IMG/VR virus record: IMGVR_UViG_3300025889_000809
Location: 1-26,697 of that record
DNA: 26,697 bases
Source: a virus
Strand: one strand, 5' to 3'
A program made the position numbers and the translations under genes. Below are positions 16,228-19,420 of the stretch, piece after piece. How positions within the stretch are numbered: position 1 is the first letter of the stretch; each line of letters opens with the position of its first letter. The notes below the pieces were generated by a model. That model had not been told where the DNA came from and made no database searches. It was given only the letters and a program-made list of their open reading frames with translations.

Positions 16228-16914
16228 TTAAAATAATTTTAATTGATCATCATTATTATAATGATTATACATAATAATTTTAGCACCATCATTATATCTA
16301 TTTTGATTACATTTAGGATATTGTTTTTCTATTTTATAATTAAAGTTTTTAAGTATTATTTTCTTTGTGCGTTTATCTGCATTTATATAAAAATACCTAT
16401 GTTTTATTTTAGGTTTAATCTTTTTTATATTGTTTTTTTTTGCCCATTCGCTGATACTTGTTATACCATATTTTTGAGTAATACTTTTTGGATGCATTTT
16501 TTTTCCATTTATAATATATTCACAATCGTGTGAAACAACTCCACCTGTATATAACCAGTTAGTAGATTGATATACTATACCACAATGATTCATATTAGTA
16601 TCTGCATAGCTTACTACTATATTGTTTTTAGGTAATAATTTAAGGCTGTTACCAATTAAAAAAGATGCAGCATTGTTTTTTTTTGTTTGTATTACTAATC
16701 TTGTTAATTCATAAACTTTATAATTCAAATTTATATCTTTTTTTAAAATAGATTTTTCAATTTGCACAGGAGGTCTACCATAAACTACTATTCCCTCTAT
16801 TTTATTTGATATTACTAATCCATAAGCAAATTGATACATAGGCTTTCTCTTTGCATAATGTTTCAACAAACACCATTTCATAGCATTATCATAAGATATT
16901 TCTATTACTTTCAT
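16228..16914 (-). CDS. Mom-like DNA adenine modification protein
   Basis: The 228-residue product matches the Mom family of phage Mu: ELTRLVI (69-75), NAASFLIGNSLKLL (81-94), a SYADTN motif (102-107) and IVYQSTNWLYTG (113-124). These are the conserved core of this GNAT-fold group, which converts adenine in DNA to a carbamoylmethyl-type derivative and protects phage DNA from restriction. The C-terminal third is very rich in Lys, Asn and Tyr, suggesting DNA contact. It ends in QLKLF (224-228), resembling a sliding-clamp-binding peptide. By eye the gene is much more AT-rich than dnaB next door, consistent with separate acquisition. The chemistry here is inferred from the family. Confidence 0.85.
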   Translation of the reverse strand: MKVIEISYDNAMKWCLLKHYAKRKPMYQFAYGLVISNKIEGIVVYGRPPVQIEKSILKKDINLNYKVYELTRLVIQTKKNNAASFLIGNSLKLLPKNNIVVSYADTNMNHCGIVYQSTNWLYTGGVVSHDCEYIINGKKMHPKSITQKYGITSISEWAKKNNIKKIKPKIKHRYFYINADKRTKKIILKNFNYKIEKQYPKCNQNRYNDGAKIIMYNHYNNDDQLKLF

Positions 16915-16923
16915 ATATTGTTT

Positions 16924-18357
16924 TTAAAATGGTAAAGTATCATCTACCTCATCTGTAGTAAGGTGATCTCTAAATCTTTTTGTAGTTTCTTTATTTATAA
17001 AGTTATCAAATTCTATCATTTTAGTCAAATCCATGTTATAACTCTCAGGATGTATTACTGCATCATTATCCTTTAGATAGGTCTGGAATGTAGATGTATT
17101 TTTATCCATGATCATGTAGTCCATCCCTGTCTCTCCATGTCTATTCTTACGAGTAATCAGTATAGTCATTCCCTCCTTTTCTACATTCTCATTGGAATAG
17201 TATTCCGGTCTATACAAAAAGCTGACTATATCAGCATCCTGCTCTATATCTCCTGATTCCTTTAAATCTGATAATACAGGCTTTTTATCTGTTCTACTCT
17301 CTACAGATCGTGAGAGCTGAGCCAAAGCTATTACAGGAATATTCAGATTCCTGGCTAATCCTTTAAGCTCTCTGCTGATCTTACCTACCTGTAGATGCCT
17401 GCTCTCTCCTGCTGCTCTGACTAATTGCAGATAATCTACAAAGATAATATCTATATCATGCTGCATCTTTGCCTTTGTAGCCTCTGATAGGATATGAGTT
17501 AAGGCAGGATTAGGAGTATCATCTATTAGGAATATATTTGATTTTTTCTCTCCTAATTGGCTCTGTATATGCTCCATCTGAATGTTATTGATCTTATTTT
17601 TTTTGATGTCTAAGGCAGATATAGAGGATTCCCTGGCCATTATCAAATGGCTTATCTGCTCTGATGACATTTCTCCACTAAAAAACATAACATTTTTACT
17701 AAATATCTTATAGGCATTATATGCCCAATTCAATACAAAAGTAGTTTTTCCCATTGCAGGCCTCCCTCCGATAATCATTAGCCATCCTTTACCTGCTCCA
17801 CCTATGCGCTTATCAAATTCCTCATATCCTGAGGGCACTCCGGAAACCTCTGTATATTTTCCTAAGTTTTGGATGATGTTTTTTAGGTTATTCTCTATGA
17901 TGTTCTCTAAAGTATTGACATTCTGAACAGATGGAGATAAGATCTGTATCATTTTCTCCTTATTGCTGCTGATAATATCAAATACATCATTAGTCTGATC
18001 ATAGCATTTATGGATTAATTCATTTGCTGTATTTATTGCCTCCCTCCTCATATATTTTTCATATATGATTCGTGATACATCTGTAATATCTGCTGTGTAA
18101 TACTTGTTGGTAATATCCAATAGCTCCATCATATTAAAATTGCTATCTCTGTCTTTAAGATATTGATAGATGGATGCTGTGTTAATTGGCTTACCATTCT
18201 CCTGGAGATCTATTATAGCTCTATAAATCTTTTTAGCTATTGGCTCTGTAAAGCATTCCGGATTGAGCAGATTATTTACGTTGTAGATGTTGTTAGGGGA
18301 TTGAATTAGAGTAGCTATGCATTTTAGCTCTAATTCCTGTGCAGCTATATTTTCCAT
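16924..18357 (-). CDS. dnaB: Replicative DNA helicase, DnaB family
   Basis: The 477-residue product has a DnaB N-terminal helical domain (about 1-110), linker, and RecA-like motor. Walker A is GGRPAMGKT (197-205), Walker B IIFVDYLQL (304-312), then PVIALAQLSRSVESR (341-355) and LKESGDIEQDADIV (365-378). It unwinds the phage fork as a hexamer and likely recruits primase. Its ATG overlaps the upstream initiator-like gene by 1 nt (TAATG). The last residues are VDDTLPF, an SSB-type acidic tip not expected on a helicase. It lies next to the iteron-bearing gene, as lambda P lies after lambda O. Confidence 0.95.
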   Translation of the reverse strand: MENIAAQELELKCIATLIQSPNNIYNVNNLLNPECFTEPIAKKIYRAIIDLQENGKPINTASIYQYLKDRDSNFNMMELLDITNKYYTADITDVSRIIYEKYMRREAINTANELIHKCYDQTNDVFDIISSNKEKMIQILSPSVQNVNTLENIIENNLKNIIQNLGKYTEVSGVPSGYEEFDKRIGGAGKGWLMIIGGRPAMGKTTFVLNWAYNAYKIFSKNVMFFSGEMSSEQISHLIMARESSISALDIKKNKINNIQMEHIQSQLGEKKSNIFLIDDTPNPALTHILSEATKAKMQHDIDIIFVDYLQLVRAAGESRHLQVGKISRELKGLARNLNIPVIALAQLSRSVESRTDKKPVLSDLKESGDIEQDADIVSFLYRPEYYSNENVEKEGMTILITRKNRHGETGMDYMIMDKNTSTFQTYLKDNDAVIHPESYNMDLTKMIEFDNFINKETTKRFRDHLTTDEVDDTLPF

Positions 18358-19190
18358 TATTGTTTGATGTTTTCTAAATAGAATCTTTTGTATTTATTCT
18401 GAGTAGCATATTGGATGCATTCAGTAATTTTATCTATGATAAACTTAGATGTAAATGATCCATTGGTATGTAGTACAGATTTTATCAGTACCTGAACTAC
18501 TTGAATACTATTGATATTCATTTTGTAAATATAAGTAAGAAAAGCACGATTCAATCTTTTCATAGGAAATGATATATCTATATCTGCTTTTTTAATTTTC
18601 TCCTCACTATAGACCATAAAATCCTCTGGTTCAAAATTAAGATCATCAAAATATAGAGATACTATTACAGATGCCTTTTTTTCGTACTCCTCTAATTTTA
18701 ATAATTCAGGATTCTCTATTTGATCATAAGAAAAAGAGAGAGAGGTTTTTTCTATATCCTCATTTACATTTTCATTTACATTAACATTAACATTTACATT
18801 TTCATTTACATTAGGTTTTTCATCTGATAACGTAAGGTTTTCGGTTTCATAACCTATGGTTTTATTATCAATAACCAGTGGTTTTTTAGTTTCATAACAA
18901 GTGGTTTTTTTATTAGAAACCTTAGGTTTTGTATCTGCATTACCTATGGTTTTCTTAGGTCTGCCTCCTTTTTTACCATCTGTAAACCTTTTAGTATTGG
19001 CATCTATCTGAGGCTTTATATTTGTAAATAATAAATCTATAAGAGGATCCATATCCTCATCTACTACGCCATCTATACCATAATATGCTACAGCTTTAAA
19101 TAATTTCAATGCAGTTTCTGCATCAAATTGAGTCTCTAATTTTACTATAGAATCTATAAATGATCTATAGAGTACCATTGAATCTCTCAT
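18357..19190 (-). CDS. Replication initiator-like protein carrying the origin iterons (DUF6291-type)
   Basis: The 277-residue product has an N-terminal helical domain (1-75; SMVLYRSFIDSIVKL, LFKAVAYYGIDG) typical of DUF6291-type phage replication proteins. A basic KKGGRPKK hinge (73-80) follows, then a low-complexity middle and a C-terminal helical domain (about 155-277). The middle has three 15-residue repeats starting KTIG/KTTC/KTIG (80-94, 95-109, 110-124), then an Asn-Val-Glu repeat (127-144). At DNA level these are iterons and an AT-rich repeat. Position directly before dnaB with iterons inside the gene matches lambda O. It probably binds the iterons and loads DnaB. The family name is moderate confidence; the replication role is well supported. 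Confidence 0.75.
   Translation of the reverse strand: MRDSMVLYRSFIDSIVKLETQFDAETALKLFKAVAYYGIDGVVDEDMDPLIDLLFTNIKPQIDANTKRFTDGKKGGRPKKTIGNADTKPKVSNKKTTCYETKKPLVIDNKTIGYETENLTLSDEKPNVNENVNVNVNVNENVNEDIEKTSLSFSYDQIENPELLKLEEYEKKASVIVSLYFDDLNFEPEDFMVYSEEKIKKADIDISFPMKRLNRAFLTYIYKMNINSIQVVQVLIKSVLHTNGSFTSKFIIDKITECIQYATQNKYKRFYLENIKQ
18761..18813. repeat. AT-rich direct repeats next to the iterons
   Basis: A 23-bp sequence at 18761-18783 is repeated exactly at 18791-18813, built from CATTTACATT/TTCATTTACA hexamer-like units. It codes the Asn-Val-Glu run of the initiator-like protein. Its second copy adjoins the first iteron. An AT-rich stretch beside iterons is where lambdoid origins melt. Confidence 0.85.
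18807..18953. repeat. Seven iterons at 22/23-bp spacing, probable replication origin
   Basis: Seven 13-bp units start at 18807, 18829, 18851, 18873, 18896, 18918 and 18941, with steps of 22, 22, 22, 23, 22 and 23 bp. On the plus strand they are TACATTAGGTTTT, AACGTAAGGTTTT, AACCTATGGTTTT, AACCAGTGGTTTT, AACAAGTGGTTTT, AACCTTAGGTTTT and TACCTATGGTTTT: consensus AACC-N3-GGTTTT, partly palindromic. The step is two helical turns and not a multiple of three, although the repeats lie in coding sequence. Pairs of steps make 44-45 bp, which gives the 15-residue protein repeat. With the AT-rich repeat beside them and dnaB next, this is a strong origin candidate. Confidence 0.85.
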
Positions 19191-19193
19191 AAA

Positions 19194-19325
19194 TTAAATT
19201 TTAAATAAAAAAAAATGGCCTACACAAGCAGAGCAGAGGATGTGACATGATGCCGAACAGATAGCATCTCCTCCTTTCCACTTGTATAGACCATTATAAT
19301 CTATTACTAATGTTATTCTGTTCAT
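19194..19325 (-). CDS. Small Cys/His-rich ORF
   Basis: The ATG at 19325 follows a purine-rich stretch (GGAGAAAGAA) and gives 43 residues ending 4 nt before the initiator-like start codon. Residues 23-37 hold CSASCHILCSACVGH: four Cys and two His within 15 residues, which could bind zinc. The promoter-like element at 19388-19420 lies just upstream. It could be a leader peptide or a tiny regulator of the replication operon. No family is known to me; it may also be a chance frame. Confidence 0.4.
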   Translation of the reverse strand: MNRITLVIDYNGLYKWKGGDAICSASCHILCSACVGHFFLFKI

Positions 19326-19387
19326 TTCTTTCTCCGGTCATTGTTGCAGGTTGTCAAGCTGCTGACCTAATCTAAAGTGTGTTAAGG

Positions 19388-19420
19388 CAAATATAGATTA
19401 TTTTTCTAATTCTTTCCAAA
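19388..19420 (-). promoter_or_regulatory. Bacteroidetes-type promoter for the replication operon
   Basis: On the minus strand TTTG (19420-19417), 21 bp, then TATATTTG (19395-19388), a full match to TAnnTTTG. Transcription would start near 19383 and read the small Cys-rich ORF, the initiator-like gene, dnaB and mom. It overlaps the end of the preceding gene. Confidence 0.7.

What the first reader, a model, noticed from the sequence alone, without database searches (positions are those of the whole stretch)
18757..18960. Lambda-style replication origin embedded in the initiator gene: seven iterons at 22/23-bp steps
Seven copies of AACC-N3-GGTTTT (starts 18807, 18829, 18851, 18873, 18896, 18918, 18941) lie in coding sequence with a two-turn period that is not a multiple of three. 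DNA binding, not the protein, is the likely constraint. Paired steps of 44-45 bp produce a 15-residue protein repeat that keeps the frame open. An exact 23-bp AT-rich duplication adjoins one side, as in lambda ori. dnaB is the next gene.
Basis: partly seen in the sequence, partly recalled or inferred. Interest (0 to 1): 0.8.

Follow-up and report, generated by a model that had tools for sequence, protein, structure and literature searches.

The report
Phage origin hidden inside initiator gene
A gene family of unknown function (DUF6291) found in many phages seems to encode a replication starter whose own DNA binding sites are written, once per turn of the helix and in all reading frames, inside its own gene next to an easily melted stretch, so the gene is probably also the phage's replication origin.

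Summary
Seven sites lie at exactly the stated positions (steps 22/22/22/23/22/23). GGTTTT is intact in 7/7, the AACC half in 3/7. Three copies match AACC-N3-GGTT on both sides, where synonymous recoding of the same protein gives 0.11 on average (max 2 in 2000). The one close relative (L001) keeps all seven in register, five of them perfect.

The gene is DUF6291 (PF19808, unknown function), with dnaB immediately downstream. Across 155 non-redundant DUF6291 genes, AACC is the most over-represented 4-mer against a synonymous-codon null (873 vs 393). It recurs every 11 bp (324 vs 33 pairs), equally in all codon frames, only in the linker-coding part. A ~60-bp AT-rich element, more AT-rich than the codons require, follows the array. 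A minority without the GGRP linker motif uses another word, AGCAA, with the same step. Relatives carry DnaD or other initiator C-termini and often precede DnaB, a G39P-type loader or SSB.

Best reading: DUF6291 is a phage replication initiator that binds iterons inside its own gene and melts the adjacent AT-rich DNA. It works like lambda O, SPP1 gp38 or pSK41 Rep but showed no homology to them here. Binding and replication are untested.

The parts
18357..19190 (-). DUF6291 gene, 277 aa: proposed replication initiator that contains its own origin
   Evidence: PF19808 E=5.8e-13, 49.3 bits vs cut-off 27.2; PHROG families of unknown function
18954..19181 (-). DUF6291 domain (aa 4-79): predicted three-helix bundle (H9-21, H24-40, H49-70)
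   Evidence: Pfam; AlphaFold block pLDDT 92-98 over residues 1-70 (domain alone); no PDB fold match at E<=0.001
18951..18974 (-). KKGGRPKK linker motif (aa 73-80), AT-hook-like by eye; its presence goes with the AACC word in the family
   Evidence: alignments; 80/80 AACC with motif vs 9/9 AGCAA without
18941..18951 (.). iteron 1, TACCTATGGTT (+)
   Evidence: conserved in L001
18918..18928 (.). iteron 2, AACCTTAGGTT, perfect
   Evidence: conserved in L001
18896..18906 (.). iteron 3, AACAAGTGGTT
   Evidence: perfect in L001
18873..18883 (.). iteron 4, AACCAGTGGTT, perfect
18851..18861 (.). iteron 5, AACCTATGGTT, perfect
18829..18839 (.). iteron 6, AACGTAAGGTT
   Evidence: perfect in L001
18807..18817 (.). 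iteron 7, TACATTAGGTT, weakest inverted half-site
18747..18806 (.). AT-rich element next to the array, proposed DNA unwinding element; contains most of the period-6 tract 18761-18812
   Evidence: GC 18.3% vs 34% for the window, lowest 2.5% of 60-bp stretches; family-wide 60-bp AT-rich flank below the synonymous null
18363..18713 (-). C-terminal helical region (aa 160-276), predicted with modest confidence; helicase-contact module by analogy only
   Evidence: no family match of its own
16924..18357 (-). dnaB replicative helicase, start overlapping the end of the DUF6291 gene
   Evidence: PF03796 E=5.6e-80

Best explanation
The gene 18357-19190 encodes a phage replication initiator of the DUF6291 family, and the middle of the gene is its origin. 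Inferred mechanism: the N-terminal DUF6291 domain with the KKGGRPKK linker binds the AAAACC half-sites. The sites are phased at 22/23 bp (two turns) in this phage, as inverted AACC-N3-GGTT sites, and at 10.5-11 bp in most relatives, so protein subunits stack on one face of the helix. The complex melts the AT-rich 60 bp that follows, and the C-terminal part helps bring in the DnaB helicase encoded by the next gene. Shown by computation: the DNA-level constraint, helical phasing, AT-rich flank, conservation, fusions and neighbourhood. Not shown: binding, melting, helicase loading, origin firing.
For: Iterons exceed the synonymous null in the window and L001 and are kept in register at synonymous sites. 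Across 155 genes AACC is the top 4-mer over the synonymous null, 873 vs 393; pair spacing peaks at 11, 22, 33, 44 bp (11 bp: 324 vs 33) and codon frames are even at 266/306/301. No excess in 858 neighbour genes (818 vs 886) or in the DUF6291-domain part (161 vs 163). Arrays of at least 4 in 87 genes vs 8.1 expected; GGTT at +7 48 vs 2.8. AT-rich 60 bp after the array, z -8 to -10 vs the synonymous null in 81 genes. DnaB_2/DnaD C-termini in 10/100 and DnaT in 1; initiator PHROG modules; C-terminal modules matching 'replication initiation O-like' and 'primosomal' phage proteins. Downstream gene DnaB_C in 18/76, G39P 6, IstB 4, SSB 4. Word/linker co-variation. In seven 40-49 kb phage records, arrays of at least 4 AACC occur only in the DUF6291 gene (five records).
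Against: No experiment. Window GC skew shows no inflection. Of seven phage records the detrended skew minimum lies at the DUF6291 gene in three (GRNRAP2, CRP19, NrS-3; the first two look related by gene content) and 3-7 kb away in four. No known DNA-binding fold was recognised in the DUF6291 domain. About 27% of the genes sampled had neither word array (42 of 155), and the sampling required GKKGGRP-like or KPQIDAN-like stretches. The window's own C-terminal part matches no known family.
Confidence: 0.85

Rival explanations
1. The iterons are sites for the DUF6291 protein, but serve autoregulation, partition or packaging and not replication initiation.
For: All evidence for DNA-level constraint fits any multimeric DNA-binding site; a conserved structured leader lies just upstream of the gene, so the gene is probably regulated.
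Against: AT-rich 60-bp element directly after the array, under DNA-level constraint; DnaD/DnaT/initiator C-terminal modules; DnaB, G39P and SSB genes downstream. Operators in the middle of the coding sequence would be unusual (general knowledge).
Confidence: 0.09
2. It is an origin, but the iterons are read by another protein (host factor or another phage protein), not by DUF6291 itself.
For: No recognised DNA-binding fold in the DUF6291 domain; no direct binding data.
Against: The word changes from AACC to AGCAA where the linker motif of the same protein is lost (80/80 vs 9/9, three changes on the tree); hosts span several phyla, which argues against one host factor.
Confidence: 0.05
3. The repeats are a protein-level feature: a low-complexity linker made by slippage of repeat units.
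For: The linker peptide is repetitive and the period-6 tract looks like slippage products.
Against: Synonymous recoding destroys the pattern; AACC is spread evenly over the three frames, giving KP, NQ/NL and ET, so the peptide differs while the DNA word is the same; no excess in neighbours.
Confidence: 0.01

Closest known systems
Phage SPP1 gp38 / oriL (Bacillus subtilis)
   Same: Origin of direct repeats plus AT-rich unwinding element inside the initiator gene; initiator, loader gp39 and DnaB-type helicase gp40 work together (PMC6316719). G39P-family genes follow DUF6291 genes in 6 of 76 loci.
   Different: The window protein matches only DUF6291 in Pfam. AACC every 10.5-11 bp across three frames is not described for SPP1 in the passages I read.
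Bacteriophage lambda O protein / ori-lambda
   Same: [quoted passage not shown] PMC7466680). The window's sites are inverted repeats, as lambda's are.
   Different: Lambda iterons are 19-bp inverted repeats, these are 11 bp; the protein is DUF6291 and not lambda O family; most DUF6291 relatives use direct repeats at 11 bp.
RepA_N plasmid initiators, pSK41 Rep
   Same: N-terminal domain binds boxes inside the rep gene; the central part encoded by the ori is a dispensable linker; C-terminal domain resembles DnaD (PMC5703833). Same three-part layout as DUF6291 proteins.
   Different: RepA_N N-terminal domain is a winged HTH (PMC5703833); DUF6291 is a predicted three-helix bundle with no PDB fold match and no RepA_N match.
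DUF6291 (PF19808) / phrog_15768, phrog_19415, phrog_16304
   Same: The protein is a member of these families.
   Different: All are annotated as unknown function; no paper in the searched library names DUF6291.

Membership tests
DUF6291 (PF19808) | match above Pfam's curated cut-off | tested here: met
   49.3 bits vs 27.2, aa 4-79
Lambda O-type initiator | homology to the lambda O family | tested here: not met
   only PF19808 matched in Pfam; no O-family PHROG for the window protein
Lambda O-type initiator | multiple iterons inside the initiator gene | tested here: met
Lambda O-type initiator | adjacent A+T-rich region | tested here: met
   18747-18806, GC 18.3%; family-wide
Lambda O-type initiator | initiator binds the iterons and opens the A+T-rich DNA | not testable with these tools
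   needs gel shift, footprint and melting assay
RepA_N (pSK41 Rep) | RepA_N winged-HTH N-terminal domain | tested here: not met
   no Pfam match; three-helix model without PDB fold match
RepA_N (pSK41 Rep) | origin in the central part of the gene, coding for a linker | tested here: met
   array lies between the domain and the C-terminal part, where model confidence is low; origin function itself untested
RepA_N (pSK41 Rep) | DnaD-like C-terminal domain | tested here: inconclusive
   DnaB_2/DnaD in 10/100 relatives but not in the window protein
SPP1 gp38-type system | DnaB-type helicase and loader encoded next to the initiator | tested here: inconclusive
   DnaB next door in the window, G39P loader next door only in relatives; no loader gene recognised in the window

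The most novel reading that the evidence does not exclude
DUF6291 plus its GGRP linker is a new class of origin-binding module that assembles with one subunit per helical turn on AACC words. The linker peptide is a by-product of the origin (the same DNA word at 11-bp steps read in three frames gives KP, NQ/NL, ET), and the recognised word switches (AACC to AAGCAA) with the linker, giving a natural two-word code for initiator-origin specificity across phages of several bacterial phyla.
Probability: 0.45. Interest if true: 0.78.

Novelty: new variant of a known kind. Interest (0 to 1): 0.64.

Why it matters
It gives a testable function to a protein family of unknown function that is spread over phages and prophages of several bacterial phyla, and it locates their replication origins from sequence alone. 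It is a clear case of an origin dictating the peptide it encodes, shown by frame-independence and synonymous-site tests over 155 genes. The linker/word co-variation offers a ready experiment on how an initiator recognises its origin. Located origins would also help build replicons for gut Bacteroidota and Clostridia that are hard to work with.

Tried and rejected
Protein-level repeat: rejected by synonymous recoding and even frame use. Chance: rejected. GC skew as evidence for the origin: window uninformative; seven phage records mixed (3 at the gene, 4 are 3-7 kb off), so not relied on. The 23-bp duplication as a special element: part of a period-6 tract, not kept as a duplication in L001. 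Sequence and fold search for a known DNA-binding domain: nothing significant. Closer relatives by single-protein scans: only L001; none in genome contigs by single-protein query. Phylum samples of species genomes gave few DUF6291 genes (2/299 and 3/296 genomes); new members read there (L184, L188, L189) show no AACC-type repeat peptide by eye. Control initiators (PF09681/HTH_36) were only 15 genes and mixed, several not phage initiators; AACC 71 vs 54 expected, a weak control. An independent-pairs test of word against linker motif has too few independent changes for significance (1 supported pair, 3 in all). Pooled z values treat related genes as independent and are descriptive. Relatives from public phage records were not accepted by structure prediction and were left out.

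Full report
Observation. All seven sites are present at the stated coordinates with steps 22, 22, 22, 23, 22, 23. On the coding (minus) strand the invariant half is AAAACC (7/7); the inverted half GGTT is exact in three, one mismatch off in three and two off in one. Recoding the same protein with this phage's codon usage yields 0.11 exact AACC-N3-GGTT on average (max 2 in 2000 trials; observed 3), and 1.5 at <=1 mismatch (max 5; observed 7 in the gene, six of them in the array). The remaining 25.9 kb of the window hold none exact and one at <=1 mismatch. The array repeatedly uses the threonine codon ACC, 6% of threonine codons in this phage. The chance explanation is out.

Conservation. The only close relative found, L001 (IMGVR_UViG_3300025671_000768, 69% protein identity), keeps all seven sites without an indel and has five perfect copies. 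Nucleotide identity is 96% in the iteron half-sites against 78% in the rest of the gene; third positions of conserved codons are 17/17 identical in half-sites against 115/148 elsewhere (Fisher p=0.025). Where the window has AACCTTACGTT (LTL), L001 has AACCTAAGGTT (LRL): the amino acid changed and the DNA palindrome became perfect.

What the gene is. The protein is DUF6291 (PF19808, E=5.8e-13), a family of unknown function; the matching PHROGs are also unknown and no paper in the library names the family. dnaB follows with overlapping ends. Profile searches gave 160 more family loci in viral and bacterial contigs, from Bacillota, Bacteroidota, Spirochaetota, Elusimicrobiota and others.

Family-wide test. 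For 155 non-redundant genes I compared the 330 nt after the domain with synonymous recodings based on each locus's own codon usage. AACC is the most over-represented 4-mer (873 vs 393). Distances between AACC words peak at 11 (324 vs 33), 22 (239 vs 24), 33, 44, 55, 66 and 77 bp, and the words start in the three codon positions about equally (266/306/301). So the same DNA word reads as KP, NQ or NL, and ET in turn: an 11-bp step makes an 11-residue protein repeat as a by-product. Controls are flat: first 330 nt of 858 neighbouring ORFs 818 vs 886 expected, DUF6291-domain part of the same genes 161 vs 163. Arrays of four or more words occur in 87 genes against 8.1 expected. Some alternate 10 and 11 bp, i.e. 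10.5 bp per step (L125: 20 words; L013, L114, L148). The window belongs to a second class in which the words are 22-24 bp apart and GGTT sits at +7 (48 vs 2.8 expected), with mixed members such as L020, L036 and L126.

The AT-rich neighbour. In 81 arrayed genes the 60 bp after the last word have GC 24-29% against 38% for the gene, are lower than the synonymous expectation (z -8 to -10 per 15-bp bin), and return to the gene average beyond 60 bp. In the window this stretch (18747-18806) has GC 18.3%. Many members encode it as NVNVNEN, KEKEKD or DTDTDT repeats.

A second word. Eleven members lack the GG[RK]P-type linker motif (GKKPKxKQ and similar). In a set made mostly of them the top words are AGCAA/AAGCAA (AAGCAA 36 vs 11.4), again at 11, 22, 33, 44 bp (27 vs 1.4 at 11 bp), read as KQ, ESK, EAK. 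Among the tree rows carrying either array, 80/80 with the motif have AACC and 9/9 without have AGCAA; both traits change three times on a poorly resolved tree. This points to recognition by the DUF6291 protein itself, but rests on three changes, one of them well supported.

Function of the protein. Ten of 100 members carry a DnaB_2/DnaD domain, two Phg_2220_C, one DnaT (DnaD also); PHROG matches include DnaD-like loader, primosomal and replication initiation families. The C-terminal module of L043 matches phage proteins annotated 'replication initiation O-like', 'primosomal' and 'replisome organizer'. Among 76 downstream genes, 18 match DnaB_C, 6 the SPP1 G39P loader family, 4 IstB, 4 SSB, 3 Toprim. 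The domain is modelled as three helices at high confidence, with no significant PDB match by sequence or fold.

Whole records. In seven phage records of 40-49 kb, an array of at least four AACC words occurs in five, each time only in the DUF6291 gene. The detrended GC-skew minimum falls within 0.4 kb of the array in GRNRAP2 and NrS-3 and beside the gene in CRP19 (similar to GRNRAP2 in gene content), but 3-7 kb away in four others. Gene orientation confounds this; I treat it as weak.

Interpretation. Origins inside initiator genes with iterons and an AT-rich melting region are known for lambda O (PMC5043065, PMC7466680), SPP1 gp38 (PMC6316719) and pSK41 Rep, whose ori-encoded centre is a dispensable linker between a DNA-binding N-terminus and a DnaD-like C-terminus (PMC5703833). 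DUF6291 genes have the same layout with an N-terminal domain that matched none of these. I conclude that this is most likely a replication origin embedded in a new family of phage initiators; binding, melting and origin firing are inferred.

Limits. The sample was drawn with conserved peptide patterns (GKKGGRP, KPQIDAN), so the share of DUF6291 genes with arrays is not an unbiased estimate; 42 of 155 had neither array by my criterion. Pooled statistics ignore relatedness. The AT-hook likeness of KKGGRPKK is by eye.

Noticed in passing
window 19200-19400 (- strand), L001:2780-3000: A ~165-nt structured leader just upstream of the DUF6291 gene: a small hairpin (GGTCAGCAG...CTGC...TGACC) and a long stem ending in a T9 run, folding z -4.3, about 90% identical in L001 with one compensatory pair change; no Rfam match and no other IMG/VR contig with its motif. 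Could be a small RNA or attenuator controlling the initiator.
   Followed up: partly
window 16228-16914 (-) versus L001:5273-6523: Directly downstream of dnaB the window has a Mom-family DNA modification gene (PF25680), while the near relative has what looks like a C5 DNA methyltransferase at the same place: exchange of modification genes.
   Followed up: no
L207, L208 (HTH_36 genes in two genomes): These genes have their own in-gene repeats (GVGSHRTY/GSDRTY peptide) above the synonymous null, perhaps another embedded origin in a different initiator family.
   Followed up: no
G098 contig C4 (L184, L186): Two different DUF6291 genes stand in tandem; whether both act in replication is unclear.
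   Followed up: no
L123 and L139: Two close DUF6291 genes use slightly different words (AAGCG and AGCAA) at the same 11-bp spacing, possibly a word in transition.
   Followed up: no
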